Below, piece by piece: positions 4,725 through 64,000 of a stretch of 64,000 nt of DNA. The stretch's first letter is position 1, and every line of letters begins with the position of its first letter. The notes under the pieces are model-generated. The model searched no databases. It saw only the letters and a list, made by a program, of their open reading frames with translations, and was not told the DNA's origin. Origin of the DNA: Caenorhabditis remanei (taxonomy: Eukaryota; Nematoda; Chromadorea; Rhabditida; Rhabditidae); assembly GCF_010183535.1 (NCBI RefSeq), contig NC_071331.1:3968001-4032000 (forward strand), in the 5' to 3' direction. The position numbers and the translations under genes were made by a program.

Positions 4725-5934
4725 AGACTTAATAAATTCTAATGGAATAATTCAAATCTTAATTGTAAATATCCTAGTTGGATCGTTTAATTAAAATTTC
4801 AAAATTATTCGTTTCTTTAAAATTTCAGTGATACAGTAGAAAAAGTTACGTTTAAATTTTAGAGCATAATTAAGAAAAAATCGACTCAGCTAATCGATTT
4901 TAGGCGAGCGGTTGGGAAGATGATGGTGTGAAGGAGCATTAGGGAAGGACACCGTTCATTATCTCTGTGTCTTACACTCTCCCTCTCTCTCAATCTGTCT
5001 TTTACCAGAGAATATGTGTGTGTGTGTACACATGTACATAAATTTTCTTAGGACGACCAATACACCTCTTGGCACTTTGCCAAGATCGTGTTGTGAGAAC
5101 TAAAAAAGTTATCGGAAGTTTTATGCGTAAATGGAACTATGACTTATCACTATGAAAAAATTGTGAGTTTGTGTTAGAAAACTGGGTGAAACGGAAAATT
5201 GTTCAAATTTTAAAAGTTAAATTAATACATTTTTCGAAAACATGGTGACGTAAAAAATAAACGGCGGAAATCACAACCCTAACTATAATACATTGTGTTG
5301 TGGTTTTTTCCAAATTATATACAGAAATAACACTGAGATTTCTAAAATTTGTCGTTGAAATGTAGAAACTGAAACTGTGATTTTTAAAAAAAATTCTAAC
5401 TGTTACCAAAAAGAAACCTATTTCATAAACCCCATTAAAAATAATCAAATACCCGTTATTTAGTGCTCAAACCTTTGTCATTTTGAGTTATAAACTTCAA
5501 TTCACCACCAATTTAACTTTCGATAAGACGGCCAACACGTTTACTTTGCGCCCACAGACAGTTGCTTATCAGTGAAGACCTTTTTTCTGTTACAACACAA
5601 ACAGATAGGTAATTGGTGGTAACAAGAAATTATTAATAGTTCAATGAAATTTTTAAAAAAGTCTTAATTAACGAAAAAACGATTAAATTATAGCAGAGTC
5701 TTTTCACAAAAAACCTTATTGAAATTACGAAACCTGAAAAAACTGTAAATTTGCAAATTTTTAGTCAAGAATTTATTGAAAAACGCATTTTCAGCCGTTT
5801 TTATGTCTAGAAAATGAATATTAGATGAATTGTCATATTTTTTTCTCTGTTTTCAGTATTTATGAATTATGTTTGAACTTACGGCTATTTACATTCACCA
5901 TTCAGAACCGAAACGCTTTGTTTTTGCCAAAAAA

Positions 5935-6000
5935 CTGTTTCAGAACCACATTATCTGTGAATATTGAACGATTTTGCAATTCGTGAATTTCTTTCAATCT
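5935..6000 (+). ncRNA. Candidate 21U-RNA (piRNA) locus
   Basis: Core CTGTTTCA at 5935-5942, CAAT start context, U at 5980 (offset 38 from the end of the core). Predicted RNA 5980-6000, beginning TTCGTGAATTTC. The promoter half is conserved at 18742, 19098 and 19716; the payload is not. Confidence 0.65.
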
Positions 6001-6240
6001 TTTCCAAATTACAGAACTTAAAATTATGGGACGAACAATATTAGGCTCGGCCAACATCATGACTACAAACTGGCTCCGTGTCATGAATTATCGAGATCTC
6101 CGCTTATTAGTCTGACTTTCACATTAACACTTTGGTGTAACAGTGGAGAAAGAAAATAATCAGTTGCTAATCTGACTATAATTTTCTACTTTTTTCGTTT
6201 ATTGCACTGGTATGTACTTGAATTTAATGTTATATATGTA

Positions 6241-6641
6241 CAGTACCAGCCAAAAATCTATCATATTTCAGTGGTAAATGTACAATTTTGAGAGTCAAAC
6301 AACTTTTTATGGGATTGAACAGATCAAAAGTAACTCCATTTTTGTAGTTGACAACTTTTTTGTACAGACGCTCCCTAGAAACGTATGGTCATTTTAAAGG
6401 GACAGCTCCAAAATCGCTCAATTTTGCACGGGTCAATTTAGGGAGAAATTACTTTGTCGATACGTAACTTTCTAGGAAGTGTCCGTACAAAAAAGTTGTC
6501 AACTAAAAAAGTTATATTCTTGGTCTGTTCGATTCCATAAAAAGTCATATTGTTGGAAAGTTAGTTTTACCATGACGCACTCTCAAAGTTGGGCATTTTC
6601 AACAGAAAAAGGCTAAAATGATAGATTTTTGGCCGGTACTG
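6241..6641. mobile_element. Mariner-type MITE (CAGTACC family), copy 1
   Basis: Terminal inverted repeats CAGTACCAGCCAAAAATC and its near-perfect complement are flanked by TA on both sides (6239-6240, 6642-6643). The interior carries the family hallmark, a T-rich stretch reading roughly GTTGACAACTTTTTTGTAC, and its complement. The equivalent place in duplicate copy 2 (near 20015) is empty, so insertion followed the duplication. Confidence 0.85.
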
Positions 6642-6688
6642 TAACTACAAATTTTTCAAAAAACTAAAAATTGCAAAACCGAAACATT

Positions 6689-6757
6689 CTGTTTCATAGT
6701 GCACATAGTTTTGCTGAAAAGACAGTCAAAATTCATTGGACTAGTTAGGATGACGAT
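6689..6757 (+). ncRNA. Candidate 21U-RNA locus
   Basis: Core at 6689-6696, CATT context, U at 6737 (offset 41). Predicted RNA begins TGGACTAGTTAG. Orthologous position in copy 2 is 20081. Confidence 0.6.
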
Positions 6758-7220
6758 CTGCCGAATCTGTGTAGACACTTCCATGCACCTGTCCTTTTTG
6801 TAGTCTCTCTACGAGTAGATGACCATCACGTAGCAAATAGAGAAGAAAACGGAGGGGACCGTGTGAATCTTATGTGGTAATGGAGGGAGATAGTATCGCG
6901 TTGGAAAGGAGAGAAGTGTAAACATTACAAAATTGGGAGGATATCTAGAGGGAAAAAGGTACTGCAGTATGTAGCTATAAGACATAAAATACTGTTAATG
7001 AACCACGTATTGGAGAATTTGTGCCAGCCATATCAATATTCTACCAAGATAGATTATATTTTACTACTTTTAAAAACGGAAAATTGTTTCTTTCATGGTT
7101 TACTGATTTGGATTTTTTTTCTGTTTTGATAATTGTATAAACTTCAAATCATTAAAATGATGACGTTTCGCAAATTCTTCAAATATCTTTGATAGATACT
7201 GCTTCTGACAGCCTTTCTTA

Positions 7221-7598
7221 CTAGGGAAGGTCATGGACTCGGTCTGGAGTTATGTGTCGTGACCTATATCATTTGAAAGCTGAGAAAACGCTGTTTCCAA
7301 ATATGTATTCAGTTTTTGCCCTCGAGGCCTGGTAGTCTAGAAAAACAAGGTCAAAGCTAGAAAAATGACAAAATTATTGCCTTTTTAAAACGCGAAAATT
7401 GCAAAAAATTTCAAAACATTTTTTCCCGTGTTAAAAAGGCAATAATTTGTCATTTTTTCTAACTTTGACCCCGTGTTTCTCAAATACCAGGCCTCGAGGG
7501 CAAAAACTGAATATATATTTGTAATCAACGTTTTCTCAGCTTTCGAATGATATAGGTCACGACACATATCTCCAGACCGAGTCGAGGACCTTCCCTAG
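7221..7598. mobile_element. Palindromic MITE with TTA target duplication
   Basis: Arms of about 180 bp run from CTAGGGAAGGTC to GACCTTCCCTAG, flanked by TTA at 7218-7220 and 7599-7601. A 3-bp TTA duplication suggests PIF/Harbinger mobilisation. Part of the same family lies at about 14686-15275, where a mariner MITE has inserted. Copy 2 of the segmental duplication lacks it. Confidence 0.75.
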
Positions 7599-8949: not shown

Positions 8950-10840
8950 AATGTTACGGCTTGATAAAATATTTTTAATAGTTATGACCAGAATAGTGAA
9001 ATTGAAGATGTGATAGACAATTTCCCAGTGGAACAGATAACTTTATCGGGAGAAAATGAGAATTCTGAAACATTAATTAGAAGTCATTTCGATAATCTAG
9101 ATTGAGTTTTTTTCTGTTTCGAATTGCTTACATAGTTATAAAGATCATTTTGAAAATCGATCGTTGGCAATTTACTTTATCTGCCCAAAATATGCAGGAT
9201 CATCCAGAAACTCTTAAAAACGTCTTTTTAACCTTGTTTTACTTTACAGATCTTCGACGTAGCGGTTCGAGAGACACTTCGAAAACAGAAAAAAGCCAAA
9301 ACCACAATTTTGTAGAATTTTGTGAACTTTGTGAACTGCAAGCAAGTCATGAATATATATATTTACCTATGTTACCAAAACTCAAAAATGGTCTCATTGG
9401 AAAACTTGCCAGTGAATTGGAACAATTTTCATTTTTCAAGAAATGATTGATTCAACTTTGAGGTTTGCTTCTTTACTCAAATTTCGATTTTTTCATTTTA
9501 AAAAGTGAGATACTAATCAAGATACAGATCTATATCCTTCACTAATTTTGAACTACAATCAGCATAACAATAAACCCAAACTTTATATTTGATTTTTTCC
9601 GAATATAACCTTAAAGGTTATGCTTTTTTTGCTGTTTCATATCCCCCATTATTAGTTCTTTCTTTCTGGTACGATTACTAGAAGTTCGCGACTGCCTATT
9701 ATTATTTGGTTTAACATATAAATAGCAAAAAATATAAATATCAAATTCATTGACTGATTCAGCAAAATCATTTACTATTTTTATTTTTCCAGGTCTTGTT
9801 ATAGAATCGACAAAATATACACCCACAAGAAGAAATGTATCCTATTTTTTAGTTATATTTATTAATGCGTAGGATGTCGATGCTAGTTGTTTTATTCAAC
9901 CTTAATTTCATAGTTTGCGAAAAAATCAAGTTTCATTACCTGTACTTGGTTAGACAAACGATAATTCTGGATTGGTTTCTTAAAACGTTGTGTTTTGGAA
10001 CTTTTTCATTCTTAGCAATATTGAAAGACATGCAGCTTCTTTTATCTCTTTTTTGTGAAACCGCATAATTTATTATGAATGGATGTTTCATGTAATTGCT
10101 ATCAGAATATTCTTAGAACCTCCGATTATTCAAAACATGATTTGTATGGAAATAAAATATCAAACATCAATTATTTATTTGGTTCAAAAACACCATTTTT
10201 ATTGAAAGAAAAGGAAATTTATTGAAAAAATGAAAAAAACAAAGGTTCTCTGATTATGGGAAAACATGGCAAAGAGTATATCCATTCCTTGTAAAATTCA
10301 CACATATGAATATCAGGAAAGTGAAACAGGTAAATAATTTTTTTTTATATGTAGTGAAAAATGATCGCGTAATAATACTACCATCTTTTTGGAATGTGGG
10401 CATGAAAGGTCACGGATTTTTAGTTTTCGGGAAAATGGAAATTTTGGTCAAGGGATATAATGATGTCAGTTAAGCGATTTCTTGAAGAGAATAGCAGCGA
10501 AAAGAAGGGACAACGAGGAGCCCGAGTGGAATATATTAAATACACCTAGTATGCGTAGATGAGCTGACGGTCTCAATTATGATTTCAGAAAAAAGTGGAG
10601 GTTTTTTTATTTTATCAACTCTGTCGAATTTATCAACTCTGTAGAAAAATGTGTTCTATATATAGTAGCTGACTGAAACCGGTGATGATTTAAAAAAAAA
10701 ACGTCGATTTCTGAAAAACCAAAAGATACTTTTTACAACGCAACTTATTTATTTAGAAAAAACGTTGAGAAAACAAAGAAATAATTAAAGTTAAACATCG
10801 GAGCAAGGATTCAATAAAAGATTTAAATTTAAAAAAAACA
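8950..10840. other. AT-rich non-coding DNA
   Basis: Only short frames with no conserved features are present, full of A and T runs. It holds the locus at 9632 and an orphan core at 10322 (minus) that lacks a start context. Nothing else is recognised. Confidence 0.6.
9632..9699 (+). ncRNA. Candidate 21U-RNA locus
   Basis: Core 9632-9639, TACT context, U at 9679 (offset 40). Predicted RNA begins TAGAAGTTCGCG. Confidence 0.6.
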
Positions 10841-13800: not shown

Positions 13801-15645
13801 AGAGGATCCTTGGTTTTCACGTCCCTGAAGAACATCTTCTGGAGCATTCGGAACTTTTGGTGGTCCACTAGAAGAAGAATCGGATGATGACGGTCCTGCA
13901 AATCCAGCCAACCTAGGGACGATCGGTTCGATGTTTTCGATCTCCTCTCCCGAATCCGTTAAGGTGACAACAGTTGTGTAAGCAGCCTAGAAGGAAAATC
14001 AGTAATAACAACGAAAAAATTGTTTTATTCTCACCGGACTCTCGTTCTGCGCCTTTCTCAATAATCTCTGCTTCTCCAATGGGCAGTCTTCCGGGTTCCA
14101 TTTGTGGAGAAGGCATTTTAATTGGTTTTGGAAGTCAAGGCAATCCGAATCAAGAGCCAGCGTCACCTCGTCCCCTCTCTTCATTGGTTTCCGAGCAACA
14201 ACAATCAAATGAAGCTCGGAGCCGAATAGGTGACGGAGCTCGCATGTCGGCTGGCAGGACCGACGGATGTACTTTCCGACGGTCTCCGTTCTCCAGACCG
14301 ACATGCAAATCTGCTCCTTGTCTCCTCCCAATTTGATTCCATTATAGAGGTGGTGACAATTTTCGCCTTCCATTTCTGATCTCTCCTTGACTTCTGATTG
14401 CAAATAGATCCTTCCCGTCATCTCAAGGATCCATCCTCCGGTGCCGATGTCCTCCCTTACGATGACTCCGCTCTCCTTTTCCATCTCATCAATGAGTCTT
14501 GCTTTCTGCTTTTTGCGGAAAGCCAAAACTTTTTCTCGAACTCCAGCTGGTCGCTCGCCGACGAGTTTGGCGTGGAGGAATCCTTTGACAATTGGGGTGT
14601 ATTCGTTGACGGCGTCTTTGAGTACCGCGGACAAGGTGCTCTTCTCATTACTGTTTGGGATCTGAAATTGGGAAATGATTGGAGACAGTTTGGAGTTATG
14701 TATTGGTCGTGACCTACAGTACCACTCAAAAGTATATTAAGTTTTGCCTATTCAGTTGAAAAGGTCCAATTTTGAGAGTATCTCATGGTAATATTGATTG
14801 TCCCATCAAGTAGATTTTTAATGGATCGTACAGATCAAAAGTAGAGCTTCATTTTTGTAGTTGACAACTTTCTTCTACGGACAGTCCCAAGAGAGTTATA
14901 GTTCATTTTAAAACGACAGCTTGAAATCGCACTATTTTGCATTGAAAAGGGCCGATTTGAGATTTTGAAGATATGTAACTTGCTAGGGAACGTCCGTACA
15001 AAAAATTTGTCAACTACAAAAATGGAGCTTGTCTTTTGATCTGTTCGATCCATAAAAACGTATTTTGTGGGACAGCTAGTTTTACTATGACACACTCACA
15101 AAGTTGGGCGTTTTCAACTGTAAAAGGCAAAACCTAATATACTTTTGAGTGGTACTGTATATCGTTGGAATGCAAAGAAAGAACCGATTCCAAATATCTA
15201 TTCAATTTTTGCCCTCGAGGTCTGGTATTCGAGAAAAATAAGGTTATAGTTTGGAATTATTACCTTTCCTAAAAAAAGCTTAAATCCTTATGCTTAAGGC
15301 TCCAAGTACCTTAAAACGTAGTTTATATGAAAATCATGTCAAGACCGTCAGGATTATACCAATACCTTAAGATTTGGTTGAGTTTTTAGAGAGTGGAAAG
15401 GATTTGAAAAAAAAAGCAGAAATGTTTTTTTGTTCAAAATATTTCCCTGGGCCGGGCCAAAAAGGCTTGGCCAAAAACGCGAATTTTGTGTCTATTTGTA
15501 CGTCGGTGTGTCCAAATGTCCAAAACTCCCAAAACTTTGTTATGTTTCCAGAAAGTTACAAAGATTTGAAAATTTTCAAACAACTTACCGTGCGAATTCT
15601 TAATTTTCCATTTTTCGAGAAGTAATGCATATTGGTAGCTGACAT
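10842..15645 (-). CDS. Protein with two tandem divergent SET domains (SET-9/SET-26/MLL5-like)
   Basis: Spliced model on the minus strand, exons in order: 15645-15589, 14661-14035, 13986-13783, 13597-13433, 12754-12112, 12067-11982, 11897-11571, 11447-10929, 10877-10842. All introns are GT-AG, phases agree, and the total is 2664 nt (887 residues). The start ATG (15645) lies just after an acceptor at 15680, a likely trans-splice site. SET-like domain 1 spans about residues 84-196 with RRSCQPTC (152-159). Domain 2 spans about 406-497 with KRSCQPNC. The RRSC-P signature replaces the NHSC of active SET enzymes and resembles the MLL5/SETD5 and nematode SET-9/SET-26 group, in which catalysis is doubtful. 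No PHD finger is seen. Residues from about 520 on are Ala/Pro/Arg-rich and low complexity. Likely role: chromatin-associated, probably non-catalytic. Confidence 0.8.
13026..13311. mobile_element. Palindromic MITE in SET gene intron
   Basis: The arms share TTCGCGGGCTGAA and GTGCGGCAGGGAGTT with inverted copies on the right, ending in CTCCGCCCACAAC. The same right half occurs at about 34990-35060. The element sits in the 13432-12755 intron. Degraded mariner-MITE sequence lies at about 12870-13000. Confidence 0.6.
14717..15157. mobile_element. Mariner-type MITE (CAGTACC family), copy 2
   Basis: CAGTACCACTCAAAAGTATA termini are inverted and flanked by TA on both sides (14715-14716, 15158-15159). 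It is inserted in intron 1 of the double-SET gene, inside a remnant of the palindrome family seen at 7221-7598. Confidence 0.85.
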
Positions 15646-17867: not shown

Positions 17868-17934
17868 CTGTTTCAAACGGTTATTATGAACCGAAAATGT
17901 TGTCAGAAAATAGTTTCGTAGCTACTGAAGAAAA
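17868..17934 (+). ncRNA. Candidate 21U-RNA locus
   Basis: Core 17868-17875, TAGT context, U at 17914 (offset 39). Predicted RNA begins TTCGTAGCTACT. Confidence 0.6.
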
Positions 17935-18741: not shown

Positions 18742-18808
18742 CTGTTTCAAAACCATATTATCTGTGAATACCGAACGGATGTTGGAATTAATCAAAAACA
18801 TTAAACAA
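18742..18808 (+). ncRNA. 21U-RNA locus with altered start context, perhaps dead
   Basis: Core 18742-18749 and the promoter half match 19098. The start context is GAAT where its sisters have CAAT, so the pyrimidine three bases before the expected U (18788) is lost. Confidence 0.35.
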
Positions 18809-19097: not shown

Positions 19098-19164
19098 CTG
19101 TTTCAAAACCATATTATCTGTGAATACCGAACGGATGTTGCAATCGACTGATTTTTCGCTGTAA
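19098..19164 (+). ncRNA. Candidate 21U-RNA locus
   Basis: Core 19098-19105, CAAT context, U at 19144 (offset 39). Predicted RNA begins TCGACTGATTTT. Confidence 0.65.
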
Positions 19165-20080: not shown

Positions 20081-20148
20081 CTGTTTCAAAGTGCACATAG
20101 TTTCGCTGGTAGGACAGACAAAATTAATTGAACCTGAGAAAAGATTCC
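20081..20148 (+). ncRNA. Candidate 21U-RNA locus
   Basis: Core 20081-20088, TAAT context, U at 20128 (offset 40). Predicted RNA begins TTGAACCTGAGA. It is the duplicate of the 6689 locus with a different payload. Confidence 0.6.
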
Positions 20149-20632
20149 GAATCTGTGTAGACACTTCCATGCACCTATCTTTCTTGTAGTCTCTCTACGA
20201 GTAGATGACCATAAGATATGACGTAACAAATTGAGATGGAAACGGAGGGGACCGTGGGAATCTTATGTGGTAGTGGAGGGAGATAATATTGGGTTTGAAA
20301 GAAGAAAAGTGTAAACATTGCAAAATTGGGAAAATATCTAGAGGGAAAAAGGTATAGTATGTATGTAGCTATCTGACGGAAATTACTATTGTTTTGGTGA
20401 AAGTGTGAAACAGGTTAGAAAATTAAGTTGGCTCATCGAAAAGTCTTCTTATCAATATTTCATGATTTTATAAAATGGAACTGTTTTTCTTTTACTTTAT
20501 AATGATTTGGATCTTTTTTCTCTGCTTTGATAATTGAACAAGTTTCTAATCATAAAATTTTTGACGTTAAACGATGAAAACTCTTTATGAGATAATAGTT
20601 GATTCTTAAGTTAAAAAGTAATCAGAAATTTA

Positions 20633-21655: not shown

Positions 21656-21722
21656 CTGTTTCATCATGGGAAAATTACATCTGAAATTTGAAGTCTAGCA
21701 TTAAAGACTACACAATCGTTGC
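21656..21722 (+). ncRNA. Candidate 21U-RNA locus
   Basis: Core 21656-21663, CATT context, U at 21702 (offset 39). Predicted RNA begins TAAAGACTACAC. Confidence 0.6.
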
Positions 21723-23519: not shown

Positions 23520-23587
23520 CTGTTTCAGCATCTTCACTTCTCGTCTCTTACAGTGCCAGTTTCTAGTTTTGATGTAATTTCGAGCTA
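23520..23587 (+). ncRNA. Candidate 21U-RNA locus
   Basis: Core 23520-23527, TAGT context, U at 23567 (offset 40). Predicted RNA begins TTTGATGTAATT. The promoter is shared with 28171. Confidence 0.65.
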
Positions 23588-24113: not shown

Positions 24114-24180
24114 CTGTTTCAAAAGGTTTTGATAAATTAAAAAGGTTGTCAGATATTATTAAGTACATGATGTATGACAA
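24114..24180 (+). ncRNA. Candidate 21U-RNA locus beside a hAT insertion
   Basis: Core 24114-24121, TATT context, U at 24160 (offset 39). Predicted RNA begins TAAGTACATGAT. The hAT element ends 10 bp upstream of the core and may have split the wider promoter motif. Confidence 0.5.
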
Positions 24181-28052: not shown

Positions 28053-28170
28053 TTAACTCTATTTCAAATTTCAATCAATACAGCGTTCAAAATGTTGAGA
28101 CGCACTTTAAACATATTATTTATTTAAAATATAATGTAAATTATATGATTACAACTACCGTATCTAGTTT

Positions 28171-28238
28171 CTGTTTCAATAACTTCACTTCTCGTTTCTC
28201 ACAGTGCCAGTTTTCAGTTAAGACTTCTGACAATGCAT
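28171..28238 (+). ncRNA. Candidate 21U-RNA locus
   Basis: Core 28171-28178, CAGT context, U at 28218 (offset 40). Predicted RNA begins TAAGACTTCTGA. Promoter paralogue of 23520 with a different payload. Confidence 0.65.
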
Positions 28239-34831: not shown

Positions 34832-34898
34832 CTGTTTCAATTTGCTTATTTTCCAAGTTCCATAAATGATATTGCAATAATCCTATCACTTCGTACTG
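34832..34898 (+). ncRNA. Candidate 21U-RNA locus in gene A 3' flank
   Basis: Core 34832-34839, CAAT context, U at 34878 (offset 39). Predicted RNA begins TAATCCTATCAC. It starts 115 bp after the gene A stop codon. Confidence 0.55.
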
Positions 34899-35337: not shown

Positions 35338-35404
35338 CTGTTTCAGAACATCATGAAATATTCTTAGTTTTTATGAAAAGTGCTAAGGAATCTTTACAGT
35401 TTCG
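35338..35404 (+). ncRNA. Candidate 21U-RNA locus
   Basis: Core 35338-35345, TGCT context, U at 35384 (offset 39). Predicted RNA begins TAAGGAATCTTT. Confidence 0.55.
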
Positions 35405-41045: not shown

Positions 41046-41178
41046 TATTGGATATCGAAACTGTTTCAAAATGTGGTCAAATTTTAGAGTTAGTTTGTTG
41101 GAAGTTTGTCATTACGTACTATTCAGTTACAGCATACATAGTTAATAAGGACATTTCGAAGTTTTAAACAAAAAAACA

Positions 41179-42447: not shown

Positions 42448-43775
42448 ATGGAGGATCCAAAGAAGGTGGCCGCCGAGACCGAGTCTTATCGCAAGATTGC
42501 CTTTGCAGGTAAGCTGGGGTGCCAGTGGCGCGTTTTCATGAAACTTTCTGTTACGAGTCTTTAACTTAAGATTTTCACATCAATATACCTGATTTCACAA
42601 GGATCACCGAATTTGTGAAACCAAAAATTTCATTTTTCCAGGTATCGCAATCTCGACTGTCGCCACTTTGACCGCCATCTTGGCCGTCCCAATGTTGTAC
42701 AACTACATGCAACACGTTCAATCCTCCCTTCAAACTGAGGTTGACTACTGCCAACATAGAACTGATGGTCTTTGGGATGAGTATAAGAATGTGAGTTGAG
42801 TTTTTGTGATTTTTGAAAATCACACTTTTGGTACTGTTTCAATTTTCTTATCTTCGTTTGAAATTCGCCCTGATTCATTATCAGATCAGTGAATTTTTTC
42901 AGTTCCAAACCCTCCACGGAGTCAACGAACGTATCCGTCGTGCCGCACGTCGCCATACCGGAGAGGTGACTCGCTCGAAGAAGATTCGTCGTCAGAATGA
43001 AGACGAGGAAGTTGAGATTATCTATGTGGATGAGGAAGGAAATGAGGTGGAGGATCAGACACCAACTGCTGCTCCAACCGGTGCTCCAGCTCCAGTTGCC
43101 CAAGCTCAAGTACCAGCATCTTCTTTCACCGCTGCTCCACCTGCTCACAGATCACCAGCCTCATTCGCTTCATCATCTGGATCCTGCTGCTCATGCGGAG
43201 TTGGACCAGCTGGACCACCAGGACAGCCAGGGCAAGACGGAGCACCAGGTAATGATGGAAACCCAGGAGCACCAGGACATCCAGGACAAGACGCTGCTGA
43301 TGATTCTCATGCTTCTGCCGACTCTTTCTGCTTCGATTGCCCAGCTGGACCACCAGGACCATCCGGTGCACCAGGACAAAAGGGACCATCAGGAGCACCA
43401 GGAACTCCAGGACAATCCGGCGGAGCTGCTCGTCCAGGACCACCAGGACCAGCTTGACCACCAGGACCATCAGGAAATCCAGGATCCAACGGAAACCCAG
43501 GAGCACCAGGAGCTCCAGGACAACTCGTCGATGTTCCAGGAACTCCAGGACCAGCTGGACCACCAGGACCACCAGGACCAGCAGGTGCACCAGGACAACC
43601 AGGACAATCAGGAGGAGCCTCTCAACCAGGACAACCAGGACCACAAGGAGATGCAGGAGCACCGGGACAACCAGGAGCTCCAGGACAACCAGGTCAACCA
43701 GGACAAGATGGAGATAGTGGATCCGAGGGAGCTTGTGATCATTGTCCACCACCAAGAACTGCTCCAGGATACTAA
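42448..43775 (+). pseudogene. Cuticle collagen with nonsense codon in the Gly-X-Y domain
   Basis: Exons 42448-42508, 42642-42790 and 42903-43775 would encode 360 residues. The order is that of nematode cuticle collagens: N-terminal cytoplasmic part, transmembrane anchor (about residues 18-44), Arg-rich cleavage region (ERIRRAARR), Cys-containing non-collagenous linker, Gly-X-Y blocks broken by Cys-bearing spacers, and a short Cys-containing C-terminus (CDHCPPP). A TGA at 43455-43457 (codon 255) falls where a Gly (GGA) is expected; after it Gly-X-Y continues in frame to the natural TAA at 43773. One G-to-T change explains it. Splice sites are intact. The gene is a recent pseudogene, a null allele, or a sequence error. 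Confidence 0.85.
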
Positions 43776-51489: not shown

Positions 51490-52536
51490 TAAGCCGATAC
51501 GCTGCCGGTCAGGGTTAACTGCTGCAGCGTCTCCAGCATGTTTTGAAACCAGATACATGGAAACAGAGTTGAGCGGAATGCGGTTTAGGAAATGGCGGAA
51601 GAAAATATCTTAAAGGAGAGCGGACAGCTAAAATAGTTTTTTCTTATTTGTCTAAAATAAAGGTACTGGGAGTGATATTCTGATACTTGAAAGATCATGA
51701 AACTTCTTCTTTAACCTTGAAAACTGACATCCCAATTAGCCAACGACAGTGAGCGATGAATCAACTTCCTATAGGACAAAGGGGAGGCGGAGCCGGCCGT
51801 CTCATTTGGCGACTGGTAGAGCACAGGTAGTTGGCCAGCGACGAAATACGGACCATATACGCGTCCGCGCCGGACTTTTCCCCCAGTTTCTACAGTCAGA
51901 TTGTAACACTTAGAATTTTCAATAAAATCGGTGAACTTGGAGAATCGGATTGTTTCACAATGTCTATTGTTTATGGAAAATGTAGGTTAAAAAGAGGGCT
52001 TCATTTTTGTAGTTGACAACTTTCTTGTACGAAATCTACCTGAATGGATACAGACCGTCAAAGTAAACACTTCGAAAATCGCAATGTTTTGTATTGAAAA
52101 CTTTCCCGATCTGTAACTCTCTAGGGGGTTCTCGTACAAAAAAGTGGTCAACTATAAAAATGAAGTTCTAGTTTTTTTCTACAAATTCCACTAAAAGAAA
52201 ACATTGTCGGGCAATATGTGACACTAGGGACGCGCTCTACAAGTTGCCTATTTTTACTGGAGTGTAACATTGTCACAATCTGTATTTTTAGCGTTGTATC
52301 AAATGAACAGAGAAGTATAACTTTTGATTTCACTGTTTCATTTTTAGAAAAAAAACGGTTTAAAAAATAGCGTTTTTGTCGTAATTTGTGGCGCATTGTG
52401 TGCAAACACCGTCACGTCAAAATACACGGTCCCCGTATAAATCTACATCGTTTGAACTGTCCGGCCCCCTTTAAAATGGCGGAAAGCGGAAACCATGAAA
52501 TTTTTACACTAAAAGTGAAAAGTGTAAATTATTTCG
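51490..52536. other. Intergenic, decayed MITE
   Basis: A degraded mariner-type MITE (TTTTTGTAGTTGACAACTTT and its partner) lies at about 51970-52270. No homologue of gene C exon 3 is seen. Confidence 0.45.
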
Positions 52537-53559: not shown

Positions 53560-53627
53560 TTTTAACTGAATGTCACGGTAACAATCGACTCTGGATTTTT
53601 GAATATTAACATAAACATTTGAAACAG
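53560..53627 (-). ncRNA. Candidate 21U-RNA locus
   Basis: Core (as TGAAACAG) 53620-53627, TGTT context, U at 53580 (offset 40). Predicted RNA begins TACCGTGACATT. Confidence 0.6.
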
Positions 53628-55470: not shown

Positions 55471-55538
55471 AAGAGTTTTAAATTGAAAGTATCAGATTAC
55501 AACTTTCAATTTGTTTAAATTATGAGCCAATGAAACAG
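55471..55538 (-). ncRNA. Candidate 21U-RNA locus
   Basis: Core 55531-55538, TGAT context, U at 55491 (offset 40). Predicted RNA begins TACTTTCAATTT. A further minus core at 55795-55802 has no YRNT in the window. Confidence 0.6.
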
Positions 55539-57267
55539 CAAATATGAAACTGAAAACAATTTATGCAGAACTGATGTAACTGGGAAAATAAGTAGTCTCA
55601 AATTAGATAATAATTTTAAAACCTGAGTGGTATCATTGAAAAAAAGATATTAGAAGCAAAAATGAGACCATGAAACATTGAAAGTACCAAGATAAACAAG
55701 TATGCGCGGTGAATAACTGAAACTGTTACAAATCATTGATAAGTGTTGAACCTGTTGAAAAGATTTATTGGAACTGTCAAAAAAACTAAACAGTTGAAAC
55801 AGCCAGTAGAAATGGGAATAGTAAACTTCTTATAGTTAAAAACAAATTTATGTACTTATTCAGTGAGAAAGGTATCATGGTCACTTTCGAGACAGATGCA
55901 GTTCGACTTTGTTCACATTTGGTCAACAATGATAAATCCAATCAGGTGAATATATACAATTATAACTATCTTATAAAACAGTGTTTCACAACTCGGAAAG
56001 TGTTTTCTTTTCTTAATAACGGGAAGCTATTACATTTACACGAACCCTTGCTGGTAAAAATGGGCGAAACCCCGTATTTTACCACGATTTAAAATTATTT
56101 TACTACGGTTTTTCATGCTTTCAACTGCGAGACCCATCCGAACAAATTCCTTGTGCCTTTAACATGTTTCGGCAAGGGTTCCGAGAATATCTGATTTTAG
56201 TATCACATGAAAAGACTTGCTCGGTTTTACCAAATGCTTGTGATTTGTTTTTGGTAACGGTAGAAAAGTACTAAGGGAATTGAACTAGTAGCTTTCGTAA
56301 TTGTTTTAAGTTCCTGATATTGACTATTCATCAAACCTGGAATGTCTTTTTCATCATGATGTTTATTGGGAAGTATTTTCTTGCCGGAGGTTCGATAGCT
56401 TAATATGAGGTTTTGTCAGTTAAGAGTCCAAGAAATTTATCTGTTATGTTGGGTATCGAACTTCTGCACTCCAAAATAATACCTTTTGTTTCTTTTCCAC
56501 TGAGAGAAATTGAGCTACTTTTATAATCTCGTAAATTACAAAAGTATACAGTTTCAGTTTAATGGTTTACTTTCGATATGTTTTAACTTCCAGTGCTTCT
56601 TTTAGAACTCTTCTCGTTTTTCAAGTGGCTTAAATAGAATAAAGATCGCAACTTTCTACTGATAATTTTTGCAAAAACTGGAATCCATGACAGCAGAATA
56701 TGAATTCAATTAGCGAAATTTTGTGTCATAACAACTGACTATGCATGTGGAATACAGAGATAATATCGATTTGATCATGCCGTGATAAAAGACGAATTGA
56801 ACATCTTTGGATTTTTACTTTTGACTGTTTCGGAAATTCATTATTGTTCTTGTTTTTAGAATAATTTAATGTAGGACCATCCAGTATTTCAAAAAATCAC
56901 TGAACAAAACGGGGAACTTATTTTTGGAGCTGAAGAAACAGAGATAGATAAGTTGATGAAGAAACAAAGTGGTCATAATAAAAATGATGCAAAAAAAAAC
57001 TAATAATACGATTATGTGAAACCTGTTTTGTTCAATTTCTTTATCCAGATGCCCTACTATTACAGGGCCAAGTGGGAGAGATTGTGTGGTAGATTTGAAA
57101 ACAAATTAAATAAATGATTTTTTTTTACATCAGTGCAGCAGAAAAATTAATTTCATTTTCTTATATTGGAAAGAGTCACGCCCATTCGAATATTCAACCG
57201 GAGAAGGTTGTTGATTTCGAATATCCAGCGATATGGAAAATAGTAGAAATCACGGTGTAAATATCAG

Positions 57268-57334
57268 CTGTTTCACAAAAAGCAGAAAATTTCTTTGTGC
57301 CAGAGCCATTCATTCCCAAACATCCACATTTTCA
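57268..57334 (+). ncRNA. Candidate 21U-RNA locus
   Basis: Core 57268-57275, CATT context, U at 57314 (offset 39). Predicted RNA begins TCCCAAACATCC. Confidence 0.6.
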
Positions 57335-58055: not shown

Positions 58056-58121
58056 GTAATATGGTTCCGAAATACACTAGATAATATAAATTTATAATGT
58101 GAAAAAAAGTTTCTGAAACAG
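58056..58121 (-). ncRNA. Candidate 21U-RNA locus
   Basis: Core 58114-58121, TAGT context, U at 58076 (offset 38). Predicted RNA begins TGTATTTCGGAA. Divergent from the plus-strand locus 50 bp away. Confidence 0.6.
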
Positions 58122-58170: not shown

Positions 58171-58237
58171 CTGTTTCAAAAACATCATGTTTATGTAGAT
58201 GAAATCTTAATTTTGCTTTTATTACGGAATCGGAGAC
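58171..58237 (+). ncRNA. Candidate 21U-RNA locus
   Basis: Core 58171-58178, TGCT context, U at 58217 (offset 39). Predicted RNA begins TTTTTATTACGG. Confidence 0.6.
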
Positions 58238-60041
58238 GAATTTCATTTGAATTCTCTTTTAAACTTCACAAAAACAATTTTGCAGCAGTTTGAGTGTTCA
58301 TAGGAAATCCCAGAAGTCCAAAAATTCAAAATTTGTGAATACGGAAAATGTTATTTTTGAAAACTTGAAATTGAGTAGAAAGGAACGAATCGTTCGTATA
58401 TCGACAATCTTGTCTGGTTTGAAATTGCTGAAATTAAATTATTCAAATTTGTACAAAGAAATTTTACACAAAATTTTGTTTTTATCAATCAAACAACTAC
58501 GTTTTCCACTAAACCTTATTCACAATCAAAAACATTTTCCAAAATGGAGACGTTTCAAAACATGCATGAAACTGAAATAAGTTGCAAAACAAGGAACCTC
58601 TTAACCGATTTCACTATTTGTGTAGCTTTTTAAACCACTGCTTTGGTGTATTTGTACTAATCCTAGTCCTACAGGCGTTATGCATATCTACGAAATTGGA
58701 AATAACGATAAAATAATGTTAATGGAAAAACCGCGAATCCGGTTCTAGTCTTAAAATCTGTTCCACAAGTTTCTGAATCCCAAAAATGTTACAAACCAGT
58801 TTCGATTTTGTGGTTTTTGTAATTGAAAATTTACAGAAACCGGCATTTTTAAAATCAAATCAGTTTCATAGTTTAATTGAAAATGAGAGAACACACACTA
58901 TTGGCAGTCGGAAATTATATAGAGAAAATCCAAAATCCAGGTTTTTGCATAATTATTATATTTGGTCTGATTATTTCGTTTGGTCTAAAATAATTGTAAC
59001 ATCCTTTCCAAAACGTTTAGGTCAATTACGTGAAACACATTTTTTCACTGTTTCTATAAAATTTCAACATTGTCCTAAAATTTGTCACTACTGATTGAAT
59101 CCATCTTTTACTGATCACTTGTGGTACCTTGTTTCATGTTGCAAACGCTTATGTTCCGAGCTCACAGCGATTGAAGCAGTCGTGTTGATGTCATACTCAA
59201 AATCGAAAATTTTTAAAACATCAACAATAAGAAATTGGAAAACTACACTGATCGTATAATTATCAAGCTTATAAGAAACAGAAAAATTATATTTTTCAAA
59301 CTGGCTTTCATAACGAGATAAGAGATACAAATTAAATTTAAGAGTGTGAATTCCTGGTTTGTGTATCGTAATTTTTGAGCTCAATACGCCAACTTTGAAA
59401 AGGTCAGAGCAAAAAAAATGCATTTAAAATAAATGGATTGGCCACCAATGTAACTATTTTCCATTTCATTAGAGAATTGCTGTATTCATGTAATGAATTT
59501 TTCAATAAGTACGATACAATACAATGAATCCAACAATTACTGAATCAGCGGCAGGTTACAATCGGAAACGGACAATATAACATCTCGAAGTTTACCTACA
59601 ATACCAAATAAATCTTGAGAAACAGAAAACAATGTGAAAAAGCCCAAACCAAACAATTTTTGAAGAAACTGTTAGGTGAGTCACCAATCCCAGAAAACAC
59701 CTGCATTACTAACTATCAATGTGGCTAGGAAACGTAGGACCAGTGGTTTTTAAAATGAAAATTAAATCAAAAGTTTGATACTTTGCAGTAGTCCTACCTA
59801 AATAAGAACTAAATCATGAACACTTCAACAAACATTCATACTTCGCCAGATTTTAAAAATAAATTCGGTCTTTGAAGTGATCAACAATTTTGCCAAACAA
59901 ACAATAAGAAGCACATTCAAAACAGAAAAAAAACCTGGAAAAGTTAGATAAGCTCAACTTTTTTTAAACAAAAAATACAAAAAAAATGTTCGAAGTACGA
60001 AGAAATGTGCGGTTTTTTTCGTGTTCAAATGAGTTGTATGA

Positions 60042-60110
60042 CATGTATTACCTGATTATACAGTAATTAAATAAATTTTTGGAAAAATTGAAACAATTGT
60101 TTTGAAACAG
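60042..60110 (-). ncRNA. Candidate 21U-RNA locus
   Basis: Core 60103-60110, TACT context, U at 60062 (offset 41). Predicted RNA begins TGTATAATCAGG. Confidence 0.6.
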
Positions 60111-60297
60111 CAAAAAAATTGGTAAAGGTGTGAAGATTGATGGAAAAAGCAACAAAAAAACACTTTTTTTTTTGTTGATATTTCGCATAATGTTGTTTAA
60201 AACGAAAGGCAGTATTATTTACTAAAAATCGATAACAGTTGAATCTATAATAGTTAGGCCAAAACATACAAAGCGAATATGCATGACAAGTATTGGC

Positions 60298-60364
60298 CTG
60301 TTTCAAAAGAGTCACTTATGTGAAGACTTGATGTTTCACACGTTCCACTGATTACGTTATAAAT
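60298..60364 (+). ncRNA. Candidate 21U-RNA locus
   Basis: Core 60298-60305, CGTT context, U at 60344 (offset 39). Predicted RNA begins TCCACTGATTAC. A strong hairpin starts 7 nt after its end. Confidence 0.6.
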
Positions 60365-60370
60365 ATTACT

Positions 60371-60424
60371 AAAACAGGAATCAGTTGTAGGAAATCCAAG
60401 TTTCCTACGGCTGATTCCTGTTTT
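60371..60424 (+). other. 24-bp hairpin followed by a T run
   Basis: AAAACAGGAATCAG...GTAGGAAA (60371-60394) pairs with 60401-60424 in RNA with two G-U pairs and a 6-nt loop. A run of T follows. It is too short for a typical miRNA precursor; role unknown. Confidence 0.5.
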
Positions 60425-60585
60425 TTTCTGCAGTGTTTTCGACAAGATGATTCATCTTCTTTCCTAGCAAATTATGACATAAAAGAAAAAAAAATGTTAA
60501 TGGGTTTTGCATCAAATAATATCTCCGAAGCAGAGATTATCGATTTGATGGAACGGAAGAAAACATTTATTGATGCACAATTTTG

Positions 60586-60653
60586 AAAGCGGGTAAAAGG
60601 GGAGAATTAGCAGAACGATGAGTTTAAAGCAAAAAATTTTAGTTTTGAAACAG
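60586..60653 (-). ncRNA. Candidate 21U-RNA locus
   Basis: Core 60646-60653, TAAT context, U at 60606 (offset 40). Predicted RNA begins TTCTCCCCTTTT. Confidence 0.55.
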
Positions 60654-62569
60654 TGGAAAAGAGATGTTTCCTCTCAGATATGATTCGAATGAAATTGGAA
60701 AAGTTATTTATTTCCTTTTTTCAGTTTATCCGGTTCTATTTTGGAAACTGACGCGTCTTACTCTTATGATGGCTTAATATGGAAGGTGTAAAATGAGAGG
60801 AGCAATCAAATTTGTGAAAGTGATTTCACTGATAGCGTTGATTTGAAACAAAAAAAGAACTGGGTAACAAAAAAACCAAAAAAGTTGAGGTGAGTTTCCA
60901 TTAATTTTTTCCAATTATGTTTAATGGTAGTAACTGGATTTATAGACTCGTTTTGTTGATTGAATCAATTATTCAATTCATTGTTATTTGAGATATTGCC
61001 TACGTGGGATTGAGATGCTCGTCATGTGCCTGAATGATAAGTTTTTGGGAACAGAAAAAAAATCGAGAAAAGAAAGTCGCATTAAAAAACTTACAGTTAT
61101 CGAAAAGTTTGAAATGGAATTCCGGAAACCAACCTCATTGATCCTATTGATGAGTGACCGTGTTTGACATTAGAAGAAGGGGATTCAACGGGTTGTTGAA
61201 GGAAAACGTTAGAAGTACTACACATTTCATTCATTTTTTCATTCGTTGATTATGAAACTAATAAATTTTTGCCCATTTTTTCTTCGGTTTCACTTTGATG
61301 GTTAACAGTTCTCCACTCAAAACGGTCTAGTATATAATAAGGATCAAACTGAAAATAGAACGTTGTAAGATCATAACCTTGAGTTTTAGATGGAAGCTGA
61401 TGATACATCGAGAAAACAGGTTTTTGTTTTTTGATTTTTTATCATGTTTCATGTAGAGGATAGTAGATATAGCAAGCTACGTAAGCAATTAAATAGAACT
61501 TGAAATCGGAGTCTACGAATTCAGGAAAGTTGAATTTGTGGGAAGAGCTCGATAAGTTTTTTTTTGGTACTGTGTTTTTAATAAAATGATCTTCAACAGT
61601 TAATTCTATCTATTTTCAACAAAAAATGCAAGTTTTTGAATAAATCATTTGTCCCACCATCATTAGTCAAATCGTCTTTTTTCATTCAGAAACGAAAAAT
61701 TGGGTTTGTGAAACCGATTTTCTCCATTCTACTCTGTCTCGGGCACAAAATTGTTGGAGAGAATCACGCATCTGACTAGTAAACTGTTGTTCTCAATTCC
61801 TCCAGTTTAAGGCAACTATCTGAAACAACTTTATTTTCAGAGATAAGTTTACTTTTTGTAGAGACTGAACGGTTTCTGAAATACTACTTTTACGACTTAC
61901 AGAAATTTACAAATATTCTCGAAAATCCAAGAATAACTTAATTCTCGAAGTTTCGTTCTTCCAAACATCTGCACTTTTCTAATATTTAGCTTCTATCTTT
62001 ATCAACTCGTGCACTATACTCACTGATTGATTGACAGTTATCGTTGAACTTTTTATGATTTTTCTGAAAAAGATAAGTATATGTTACGTCAGAGATAGAT
62101 TACGGTGCACTGTAAACACAATTCAAACTGACAAGTATATTGACTAACGGTAAAACACTGTTTCTGGAAACTGTAAAATTTAAACATGTAATTCAGTTGG
62201 TCGTTTGAAGTGTGACTGATGAGGGAGACTGATATTTCAGATGTGTGTATGCATTTTTACGTAGTTCATCGTGGAAACTAGCTCCTTTTCAGAATGACTT
62301 GCTCTTCGTGACATGTTCTCCTTTTCGACCATTAACTTATGCATTTGTTGATACTATTAATAAAGTAGTTGAAACTGGAGAACATTTTCTGAGTTTCAAT
62401 AGTACAACATCTGTAAAACAAGTAAATGAGACACCATAAGTACACATTCAACCAAATAAAAAAGGCATACAAATGTTTCAGTGTGACGATGAAATTGACA
62501 AGTTACATTTTTATATGATTATGCGAACCAGTATAGGGCAGTGACAAGTTGGGAACTGTTGACAAGGGT

Positions 62570-62634
62570 GAGAATACTTGTTACTTGTTACTGTCTACTG
62601 TTCATTGTTCAAGTTTACAATAAATTTGAAACAG
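62570..62634 (-). ncRNA. Candidate 21U-RNA locus, tandem unit 1
   Basis: Core 62627-62634, CAGT context, U at 62590 (offset 37). Predicted RNA begins TAACAAGTAACA. Confidence 0.65.
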
Positions 62635-63012
62635 TCCATCATTTATTTTCAGAACTTTGCTGGGTATTTAGGTTAGCATAAAAGTATCTTTAGCCATATT
62701 GCAATCCAGAAAAGGTTTTTCTACTCTGTTTTGCTCAGAATAATTTGTTTTTCGCATTCGTCAATTGGTTGACAGACTTCAATTTTTGTGAAGCAGAGGT
62801 TTATAAACTGGAATATTACTGCTGGTGTACGGACTTTATTGTAGAGAATCAATAACTTGATTATGAAACTCAAAAAAAAAAAAGAATTTTTGCAGTTTAT
62901 CACCTGTCATAAATTACATCGTGATTGCGTACCTAAGTTTCAGTCTATTTCGAAATCTCATCATTCCTGAACGAATACTGAAGATTTTGATTGAATTATT
63001 ATATAGTCTTCG

Positions 63013-63077
63013 ATGTCCATTAACGACATACCACTGTCTACTGTCCATTTTTCAAGTTTACAACAAATTTGAAACAG
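63013..63077 (-). ncRNA. Candidate 21U-RNA locus, tandem unit 2
   Basis: Core 63070-63077, CAGT context, U at 63033 (offset 37). Predicted RNA begins TGGTATGTCGTT. Confidence 0.65.
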
Positions 63078-63438
63078 TCCATCTTTTATTTTCAGAACTT
63101 TGCTGGGTTTTTAGATTAACATAAAGCTATCTTTAGCCATATTGCATTCCAGAAAATAATTTTTCTACACTGTTTTGCTCAGAATAATTAGTTTTTCGCA
63201 TTCGTCAGGCTCCAATTTTTGTGAAGCAGAGGTTTATAAACTGGAATATTACTGCTGTTACACGGACTTTGTTGTAGAGAATCAATAATTTGATTATGAA
63301 ACTCAAAAAAAAAAAAGAATTTTTGCTGTTTATCACCTGTCATGAATTACTTTGTGGTTACGTACTTGGATTTTAGTATTGTTTGAATACCAATCCTTTC
63401 TGAACCAATACTGAACATTTTTATTGAATAATTCTTTT

Positions 63439-63503
63439 TGTCTTTTTTTTATTCGATCACTGTCTACTGTTCATTTTTCAAGTTCACAATAAATTTGAAA
63501 CAG
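63439..63503 (-). ncRNA. Candidate 21U-RNA locus, tandem unit 3
   Basis: Core 63496-63503, CAGT context, U at 63459 (offset 37). Predicted RNA begins TGATCGAATAAA. Confidence 0.65.
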
Positions 63504-63611
63504 TAAATTTCCAACTTTCACTTTCATTTTGCTGGGTATTTGGGTTAACACTCAAGTAATTCCTATAAAAGATATATTTGAAGCCATATCAGAATCCAGA
63601 AAAAATATTGT

Positions 63612-63679
63612 TTTTATTCTGGTCTATTCGAAATAATTCACTTTTCTCATTAGTCAATAGGCCAGCTTTTGTGAAACAG
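63612..63679 (-). ncRNA. Candidate 21U-RNA locus, gained in unit 3
   Basis: Core 63672-63679, TATT context, U at 63632 (offset 40). Predicted RNA begins TTCGAATAGACC. Units 1 and 2 have TGAAGCAG here, one base from the core. Confidence 0.6.
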
Positions 63680-64000
63680 AGGTTTAAAAACTGGAATGTG
63701 CGTGCTTCTACGTCAGCTTTATTGCAGAAAATGATTAATTTGATTATAAAACTCTTTGTCGAAAAGGTAAAAAAATTGAATTCTGAAAAGGTATTATGAG
63801 ACAAAAATTATCAGATACTTTTTATTGTTGTTTTTGGAAAATCATAATTGATGGACGGCAAAGAATATCATCTGGAGAATATTCAGGACTACATGGTTAA
63901 CAAAATCGGTCGGTTCATTAGGAATGATTGTTCCAAACCGTGTTTGCGGAACAAGTGCGCAAATAGTCGTATTCATCCAATTAATAATAAAAATGTGCTA

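What the first reader, a model, noticed from the sequence alone, without database searches (positions are those of the whole stretch)
4725..64000. A type I piRNA (21U-RNA) gene cluster fills the gene-free DNA
I read at least 29 exact CTGTTTCA/TGAAACAG octamers; about two are expected by chance in 64 kb on both strands at even base composition. All lie in non-coding DNA at 5.9-10.3, 17.8-28.2, 34.8-35.4, 41.1 and 53.6-63.7 kb, and none in recognised exons, the retrotransposon or the Helitrons. In 24, a T in YRNT context sits 37-41 nt past the core, mostly 39-40. This is the known Ruby-motif architecture of Caenorhabditis piRNA genes. Individual loci here appear undescribed.
Basis: partly seen in the sequence, partly recalled or inferred. 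Interest (0 to 1): 0.9.

Follow-up and report, generated by a model that had tools for sequence, protein, structure and literature searches.

The report
Worm piRNA gene cluster, chromosome IV
This stretch of Caenorhabditis remanei chromosome IV looks packed with tiny piRNA genes of the known nematode kind, and comparing duplicated copies suggests that the predicted 21-letter guide changes faster than the DNA on either side of it, a possible clue to how worms renew their genome-defence repertoire.

Summary
The window has 33 exact CTGTTTCA octamers (4.1 expected, maximum 9 in 100 shuffles). In 26 of 33 a YRNT thymine lies 37-41 nt past the octamer (background 0.31, P about 3e-8), peaking at 39-40. 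All six chromosome lengths match C. remanei PX506; the window is IV:3,968,001-4,032,000. Longer motif words concentrate on chromosome IV (78 of 79 for the one word listed in full, reversed 0). The type I piRNA cluster reading is supported, but no small-RNA data could be checked. C. remanei 21U-RNAs were already known (PMC6468775), so the cluster is a new member of a known kind.

What appears new: many of the genes lie in local duplicates on IV:3.46-4.92 Mb. Between paralogs, octamer and spacer are kept up to the predicted 5'U, the next ~20 nt diverge, and in many pairs homology resumes by about +25. Mean identity is 0.71 in the mature segment, 0.91 in the spacer, 0.90 downstream (30 pairs, 16 genes), the lowest of 190 offsets. 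Reversed-octamer controls show no dip. Three of 13 families lack it. Selection and local mutation are not separated.

The parts
5935..6000 (+). predicted type I piRNA gene, octamer to U+20 (U 5980); family A
   Evidence: paralogs
6689..6757 (+). predicted piRNA gene (U 6737); family B
9632..9699 (+). predicted piRNA gene (U 9679); paralogs not searched
17868..17934 (+). predicted piRNA gene (U 17914); family E
19098..19164 (+). predicted piRNA gene (U 19144); family A
20081..20148 (+). predicted piRNA gene (U 20128); family B
21656..21722 (+). predicted piRNA gene (U 21702); the paralog shares only octamer to about U+3
23520..23587 (+). predicted piRNA gene (U 23567); family D
24114..24180 (+). 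predicted piRNA gene (U 24160); family E
28171..28238 (+). predicted piRNA gene (U 28218); family D
34832..34898 (+). predicted piRNA gene (U 34878)
35338..35404 (+). predicted piRNA gene (U 35384); substitution-only island against L076
36469..36535 (+). possible piRNA gene (U 36515); no clear island
42834..42899 (+). possible piRNA gene (U 42879) in what reads as a collagen-gene intron
57268..57334 (+). predicted piRNA gene (U 57314)
58171..58237 (+). predicted piRNA gene (U 58217)
60298..60364 (+). predicted piRNA gene (U 60344); homology with C4:4872729-4872881 ends at about the U
53560..53627 (-). predicted piRNA gene (U 53580)
55471..55538 (-). predicted piRNA gene (U 55491)
58056..58121 (-). 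predicted piRNA gene (U 58076)
60042..60110 (-). predicted piRNA gene (U 60062)
60586..60653 (-). predicted piRNA gene (U 60606); mature segment identical in its paralog L067
62570..62634 (-). predicted piRNA gene (U 62590); tandem family C
63010..63077 (-). predicted piRNA gene (U 63030); tandem family C
63436..63503 (-). predicted piRNA gene (U 63456); tandem family C
63612..63679 (-). predicted piRNA gene (U 63632)
18742..18749 (+). octamer of a family A copy without YRNT at 37-41
10322..10329 (-). octamer without YRNT at 37-41
20406..20413 (-). octamer without YRNT; no island in paralog
41061..41068 (+). octamer without YRNT; no island in paralog
52333..52340 (+). octamer without YRNT
55795..55802 (-). 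octamer without YRNT; no island in paralog
1728..1735 (+). octamer inside the retroelement ORF, no YRNT; probably chance, outside the finding's span

Best explanation
The non-coding DNA is part of a type I piRNA (21U-RNA) cluster on the left arm of C. remanei chromosome IV. Each CTGTTTCA-like octamer with a start at the right distance is the promoter of one tiny gene, and Pol II starts two nucleotides before a U about 37-41 nt downstream. In C. [quoted passage not shown] these steps are inferred here from that work. About 22 exact-motif and roughly 60 one-mismatch genes are estimated in the window. Many of the genes multiply by tandem and segmental duplication inside the cluster. After duplication the promoter is kept while the mature 21 nt diverges faster than its flanks. 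The divergence pattern is shown in sequence; its cause (diversifying selection or local hypermutation) is inferred.
For: Motif excess 33 vs 4.1; YRNT spacing 26 of 33, P 2.6e-8. Replication in 20 independent 10-kb samples of C4 (0.1-13.1 Mb): 66 of 84 sites with YRNT at 37-41, against 31.4 for other 5-nt windows; 8 reversed octamers in the same 200 kb. Whole genome: 19,000 octamers vs 6,781 reversed; TTTACTGTTTCAGAA 79 hits, 78 on chromosome IV, reversed 0. Chromosome identity by six exact lengths. Copies of families A, B, C and D found only on IV:3.46-4.86 Mb. Paralog identity without the self-match: up 0.843, spacer 0.908, mature 0.709, down 0.895 over 30 pairs and 16 genes; mature below downstream in 13 of 16, Wilcoxon P 6.7e-4; collapsed to 13 families 0.729 vs 0.895, 10 of 13, Wilcoxon P 0.0017, U+1 the lowest of 190 offsets, 1 of 20,000 random-offset draws as low. 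Reversed-octamer controls under the same filter show no dip (0.872 vs 0.844, 6 sites; 0.869 vs 0.886, 12 sites).
Against: No RNA, ChIP or population data. 7 of 33 octamers lack a YRNT at 37-41. The octamer also occurs off chromosome IV (the capped list shows only places on C1), and the per-chromosome count of the octamer itself could not be obtained; the three extended words used for mapping do not occur in the window. In the C4 samples 4 of 8 reversed octamers also have YRNT at 37-41, all at offset 39 (about 2.4 expected). Three of 13 families show no island (34832, 36469, 60653), and the sign test by family is weak (P 0.046). Out of sample, one-mismatch motifs plus YRNT dip less (0.776 vs 0.868, 13 of 19 sites; the mature offset ranks 21 of 175), and one-mismatch sites without YRNT also lean lower (0.803 vs 0.879, 5 of 6).
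Confidence: 0.9

Rival explanations
1. The octamers are carried by dispersed transposons or repeats, so the cluster is only a repeat landscape.
For: Several octamers lie in repeated DNA: families A, B and C within the window, including a 433-bp tandem repeat, and family D.
Against: The matches found for A, B, C and D are only on C4 at 3.46-4.86 Mb (the tool calls its repeat counts lower bounds). The two widely dispersed elements seen in the window hold no octamer. 23 of 33 octamers lie in no within-window repeat at E 1e-10. YRNT spacing replicates in other C4 samples.
Confidence: 0.04
2. A fossil cluster: real piRNA promoters by descent, but mostly silent now.
For: No expression evidence. 7 of 33 octamers lack a YRNT start. 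Some paralogs have a changed octamer, for example CCGTTTCA or TTGCTTTA.
Against: In paralog pairs the spacer is better conserved than the far upstream flank (0.908 vs 0.843), and the mature segment alone is accelerated. Related clusters are active in C. elegans and C. briggsae (PMC9683057), and C. remanei makes abundant 21U-RNAs (PMC6468775).
Confidence: 0.05
3. The mature-segment island is a mutational hotspot at the paused Pol II start site, not selection for new guides.
For: The island matches the transcribed 20 or so nt; some copies differ there by small indels; the mature/flank ratio is similar at 4% and 9.5% flank divergence (3.6 and 3.4).
Against: At least one pair differs in the 20 nt by substitutions only (35338 vs L076, 7 of 20). 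The four closest copies (6689/L049, 35338/L075, 34832/L074, 60653/L067; 96.5% or more identical over the homologous stretch) show no change in 80 mature positions, fewer than the 6 or so that a steady 3.5-fold rate would give by my rough arithmetic. No mutator is known to me for these loci (recalled). These data cannot exclude it.
Confidence: 0.35
4. CTGTTTCA here marks snRNA-type or other promoters rather than piRNA genes.
For: The Ruby motif is related to the SNAPc motif of snRNA promoters (PMC6436959, passages).
Against: Rfam at gathering scores finds only one tRNA in the window; density and YRNT spacing fit 21U genes.
Confidence: 0.02

Closest known systems
C. elegans type I piRNA (21U-RNA) clusters, chromosome IV 4.75-7.5 and 13.5-17.5 Mb
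   Same: CTGTTTCA core about 35-42 nt upstream across an A/T-rich spacer, YR initiator, chromosome IV (PMC9683057 and PMC3597512, passages).
   Different: Here three motif blocks on IV (about 0.7-13, 18.9-20.4 and 23.1-23.9 Mb by three motif words). Mature sequences were not compared with C. elegans here.
C. briggsae type I piRNA clusters, IV 0.02-7.1 Mb and 13.0-15.0 Mb, I 9.8-12.0 Mb (PMC9683057, passages and section 5)
   Same: A left-end chromosome IV cluster, and a second right-side block with A/T-rich flanks around the motif, as in L047.
   Different: No chromosome I block seen here: the one fully listed motif word has 0 of 79 hits on C1. That is one word, so not a full test.
C. remanei 21U-RNAs profiled by small-RNA sequencing (cited in PMC6468775, passage)
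   Same: Same species; [quoted passage not shown] elegans and C. briggsae are reported there.
   Different: I could not reach the reads or locus lists, so no listed U position is matched to a sequenced 21U-RNA.
C. elegans 21U loci shaped by transposon insertion downstream of the motif (Bagijn et al. 2012; seen only as described in a PMC3597512 passage; paper not held)
   Same: Promoter kept while the transcribed segment is exchanged.
   Different: Here, in many pairs, the change is confined to about 20-25 nt and flanking homology resumes, so no transposon insertion is seen in those pairs.

Membership tests
Type I piRNA (21U-RNA) gene cluster | CTGTTTCA core motif enriched over chance | tested here: met
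   33 vs 4.1 expected; genome 19,000 vs 6,781 reversed
Type I piRNA (21U-RNA) gene cluster | T in YRNT context about 35-42 nt downstream of the core | tested here: met
   26 of 33 at 37-41, peak 39-40; 66 of 84 in independent samples
Type I piRNA (21U-RNA) gene cluster | Megabase clusters, on chromosome IV in Caenorhabditis, depleted on X | tested here: met
   By extended motif words: 78 of 79 hits of one on IV, 0 on X and V; 100 of 100 listed (of 200) of a second on IV; 95 of 100 listed (of 149) of a third. None of the three words occurs in the window; the octamer itself could not be counted by chromosome. The C4 samples give 85 octamers in 200 kb, the window 33 in 64 kb, the genome mean is 0.15 per kb
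Type I piRNA (21U-RNA) gene cluster | Intergenic or intronic, both strands, not exonic | tested here: met
   1 of 33 in a long ORF although about 12 of 64 kb is ORF by my rough list; 21 plus, 12 minus
Type I piRNA (21U-RNA) gene cluster | A/T-rich spacer and A/T-rich DNA after the 21 nt | tested here: inconclusive
   GC 0.256 at -30..-21, 0.34 at 0..+19, 0.293 at +20..+29, 91 genes; differences small and not tested for significance
Type I piRNA (21U-RNA) gene cluster | 21-nt 5'U RNA bound to PRG-1 | not testable with these tools
   no small-RNA or IP data held
Type I piRNA (21U-RNA) gene cluster | Capped 25-29 nt precursor starting 2 nt upstream of the U | not testable with these tools
   no csRNA data held
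Type I piRNA (21U-RNA) gene cluster | PRDE-1/SNPC-4/TOFU binding in H3K27me3 chromatin | not testable with these tools
   no ChIP data held

The most novel reading that the evidence does not exclude
Nematode piRNA genes are built for guide turnover. Local duplication copies promoter and surroundings, and then the 21-nt mature segment alone diverges about 3.5 times faster than neighbouring DNA (13 pairs with flank divergence under 12%), by selection for new specificities or by a start-site-linked mutator. The piRNA repertoire would then be a germline analogue of hypervariable receptor loci, and this would help answer how new piRNA genes arise.
Probability: 0.45. Interest if true: 0.82.

Novelty: new member of a known kind. 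Interest (0 to 1): 0.55.

Why it matters
A 2022 study of C. [quoted passage not shown] it also says that individual piRNA sequences are possibly not subject to positive selection (section 5). Duplicate piRNA genes inside one genome give a direct test: promoter and downstream DNA act as rulers around the guide. If the guide is accelerated relative to both, rapid piRNA turnover is not just absence of constraint. The listed U positions and paralog pairs can be checked with C. remanei small-RNA and population data.

Tried and rejected
Repeat or transposon origin of the octamers: rejected. snRNA promoters: no snRNA found in the window. I first read family A and C alignments as homology that simply ends at the U, perhaps an inherited tandem-duplication breakpoint. 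Further copies showed homology resuming 20-30 nt later in many pairs, so I changed to a hypervariable segment; in some pairs (60298 vs L067; 21656 vs L070; 34832 vs L073; family C) homology does not clearly resume and a breakpoint remains possible. Whether close copies speak against a mutator is left open: the mature/flank ratio is similar at 4% and 9.5% flank divergence, but the four closest copies have no mature change. Targets: 26 predicted 21-mers against all DNA fetched by then (0.72 Mb counting both strands) gave, beyond exact matches, 3 places with two and 2 with three mismatches, against 1 with three for shuffled 21-mers; I did not trace each place and name no target. No printed report of mature-segment acceleration between piRNA paralogs was seen in the listings; two searches returned no paper at all, their term sets being narrow. 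The library lacks most subscription journals.

Rows dropped: one search used 84 of 85 sampled octamers. Searches included one self-match (42834 against L001, the window's own locus); one search repeats them without it and its numbers are used: 85 pairs and 28 genes in all, 74 pairs and 24 genes with YRNT, of which 30 pairs and 16 genes pass spacer at least 0.70 and downstream at least 0.78. Unfiltered (74 pairs, 24 genes) mature 0.641, spacer 0.867, downstream 0.735, upstream 0.805; by 18 families 0.680 against 0.750, Wilcoxon P 0.019, 25 of 20,000 random draws as low. Reciprocal within-window pairs count once for each gene. One search also drops near-identical copies: mature 0.730, downstream 0.895, 15 genes. 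The gene-to-family assignment is mine by inspection. Paralogs of 9632, 10329 and 52333 were not searched in the genome; the 100% identical inverted copies of 60110, 60298 and 60653 were not fetched. One-mismatch estimates use 14 of the 24 possible forms.
Full report
WHERE. The window is G000:C4:3968001-4032000. The six long contigs have lengths 17,247,545; 19,935,723; 17,877,849; 25,790,997; 22,502,457; 21,501,900, identical to chromosomes I, II, III, IV, V and X of C. remanei PX506 in Table 1 of PMC10461856 (section 6 read). C4 is therefore chromosome IV, and the window lies in its left arm (arm ends at 8.6 Mb in that table).

OBSERVATION. One search finds 33 exact CTGTTTCA, against 4.09 (sd 1.89, maximum 9) in 100 dinucleotide shuffles. 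A YRNT thymine at 37-41 nt follows 26 of 33 (random positions 0.3127; P 2.6e-8), with 10 at offset 39 and 10 at 40 against a mean of 2.5 at distant offsets. By a rough ORF list of mine (12.1 of 64 kb), 1 of 33 octamers is in an ORF: 1728, in a retroelement ORF with a Phlebovirus_G2 domain, and it has no YRNT.

REPLICATION. Twenty 10-kb samples of C4 from 0.1 to 13.1 Mb hold 85 octamers and 8 reversed ones. Of 84 usable, 66 have YRNT at 37-41, against 31.4 on average for other 5-nt windows; of the 8 reversed octamers 4 do, against 2.4. Ten 2-kb pieces (five from C4 outside the motif blocks, five from other chromosomes) hold 2 usable octamers in 20 kb, both with YRNT at 37-41. Genome-wide there are 19,000 octamers against 6,781 reversed; that listing is capped and shows only places on C1, so the octamer itself is not restricted to IV and I could not count it by chromosome. 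Three extended words map the stronger motif: TTACTGTTTCAAAAT 200 hits (reversed 3), the 100 listed all on C4; TTTACTGTTTCAGA 149 hits (reversed 0), of the 100 listed 95 on C4, 3 on C2, 2 on C3; TTTACTGTTTCAGAA 79 hits, all listed, 78 on C4 and 1 on C2, reversed 0. The C4 hits form three blocks: roughly 0.7-13 Mb (the window lies inside it), 18.9-20.4 Mb and 23.1-23.9 Mb. None of the three words occurs in the window itself.

DEGENERATE MOTIFS. In the window plus 20 samples (264 kb), several one-mismatch octamers also carry YRNT at 38-41 far above the 0.265 background: CTGTTTCG 25 of 30, CCGTTTCA 22 of 30, CAGTTTCA 44 of 63, CTGTTTCT 26 of 38, CTGTTTTA 21 of 31 and ATGTTTCA 31 of 59, against 92 of 118 for the exact octamer; others are near background, for example CTTTTTCA 17 of 74. 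For the window alone, subtracting background gives about 22 exact genes and 61 from 14 one-mismatch forms; this is an estimate. In C. [quoted passage not shown]

DUPLICATION. Families A (5935, 18742, 19098, a copy near 19.7 kb), B (6689, 20081) and C (62634, 63077, 63503; a tandem repeat of period 433) have 11, 5 and 4 genomic matches, self included, all on C4 between 3.46 and 4.86 Mb. Family D (23520, 28171) has 6, all on C4 between 3.48 and 4.83 Mb. Larger parts of the window have paralogs at about 3.48, 3.51-3.56, 4.52 and 4.82-4.92 Mb, and on the unplaced contig C137 (listings capped). Dispersed elements (about 26.09-28.05 kb; 35.76-36.01 kb) carry no octamer.

THE MATURE SEGMENT. I fetched short paralog slices and aligned gene-paralog pairs anchored at the octamer (85 pairs from 28 genes once a self-match is removed). 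Restricting to pairs with a YRNT start and homology on both sides (30 pairs, 16 genes): upstream 0.843, spacer 0.908, mature (U+1..U+20) 0.709, downstream (+31..+90) 0.895. In 5-nt bins identity is 0.94 just before the U, then 0.75, 0.67, 0.69, 0.77, then 0.83, 0.88, 0.91. Mature is below downstream in 13 of 16 genes (Wilcoxon P 6.7e-4). Collapsed to 13 families: 0.729 against 0.895, 10 of 13, Wilcoxon P 0.0017, sign test P 0.046; U+1 is the lowest of 190 20-nt offsets and 1 of 20,000 random-offset draws is as low. With all 74 YRNT pairs (18 families) U+1 is again the lowest offset, 25 of 20,000, but the contrast with downstream is smaller (0.680 vs 0.750, P 0.019), because in some pairs homology does not resume. 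Four genes without YRNT show no dip (0.913 vs 0.783), a small set.

CONTROLS AND WEAK POINTS. With the same filter, reversed octamers with YRNT give 0.872 vs 0.844 (6 sites) and without YRNT 0.869 vs 0.886 (12 sites), so the filter alone does not make the dip. The exact-motif set without near-identical copies gives 0.730 vs 0.895 (15 genes, 12 of 15, rank 1 of 175). One-mismatch motifs with YRNT, an out-of-sample test, give 0.776 vs 0.868 (13 of 19 sites, rank 21 of 175): same direction, weaker. One-mismatch motifs without YRNT give 0.803 vs 0.879 (5 of 6 sites), so that contrast is not clean. Three of 13 families show no island (34832, 36469, 60653); 34832 and 60653 are represented there only by copies at least 96.5% identical over the homologous stretch. 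By flank divergence, mature/flank ratios are 3.6 (below 6%, 5 pairs), 3.4 (6-12%, 8 pairs) and 1.8 (above 12%, 17 pairs). A clear case is 35338 against L076 (IV:4.527 Mb): flank divergence 5.6%, spacer identical, 7 of 20 mature positions different by substitution, homology resuming after.

MECHANISM. Shown in sequence: octamer, initiator, spacing, clustering, duplication, local divergence. Inferred from C. elegans and C. [quoted passage not shown] Integrator-dependent termination is from an abstract seen in a search listing (PMC7917550). The cause of the accelerated mature segment is open: diversifying selection for new guides, or mutation tied to start-site pausing.

WHAT IS KNOWN. C. remanei, C. 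brenneri and C. briggsae express 21U-RNAs with largely the features of those of C. elegans, individual sequences are not conserved, and C. remanei has 2-3 times more of them than the hermaphroditic species (PMC6468775, passage). C. briggsae clusters, including a chromosome IV 13-15 Mb block with A/T-rich flanks, are mapped (PMC9683057, passages and section 5). Motif alleles are under selection inside clusters (PMC6436959, section 12). The cluster in this window is therefore a new member of a known kind. I saw no printed report of accelerated mature segments between paralogous piRNA genes in the search listings (searches returned nothing), in a library that lacks most subscription journals (Bagijn et al. 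2012 is not held).

VERDICT. Observation confirmed, interpretation supported; the cluster alone is ordinary for the genus. The accelerated 21-nt segment raises the interest, subject to confirmation with sequenced 21U starts.

Noticed in passing
L047 (C4:23500001-23504000): 28 usable exact octamers in 4 kb in both orientations, many in a T-rich/A-rich context (TTTACTGTTTCAAAAT), partly in what by eye look like collagen-gene introns; YRNT at 37-41 in 19 of 28 against 10 for other windows. Far denser than the window and reminiscent of the C. briggsae IV 13-15 Mb cluster with A/T flanks.
   Followed up: partly
window 59629-62500 and C4:4034251-4037123: An inverted copy of at least 2.87 kb at 100% identity lies just beyond the window end: a very recent inverted duplication or an assembly artefact. 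It holds copies of three predicted piRNA genes.
   Followed up: no
window 26090-28055: Dispersed mobile element with copies on several chromosomes, up to 95% identical on C4; it holds no octamer, and a predicted piRNA gene (28171) sits about 120 nt outside it.
   Followed up: partly
window 35763-36009: Short dispersed MITE-like repeat, copies 84-94% identical on all six chromosomes.
   Followed up: no
window 1499-3856: Open reading frame of 785 aa with a Phlebovirus_G2 fusion-glycoprotein domain (E 8.6e-89), as in envelope-bearing nematode retroelements (recalled). Described only.
   Followed up: no
window 42800-43300 with L002-L006: Collagen-like gene with copies on C4 at 3.51, 3.54 and 4.84-4.85 Mb and on unplaced C137, up to 99% identical: gene and piRNA DNA appear to be duplicated together.
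   Followed up: partly
window 13999-14736 and 37316-38119: A SET-domain ORF (Pfam E 3.9e-8) and an ORF with a weak ELM2 match (E 4.5e-5) among the piRNA genes; part of the latter had no protein-database match at E 0.001.
   Followed up: no
window 41496-41575: ARAGORN tRNA-Gln call in a GC-rich tandem repeat without Rfam support, probably false; tRNA-Lys(CTT) at 42100-42170 is supported by Rfam.
   Followed up: no
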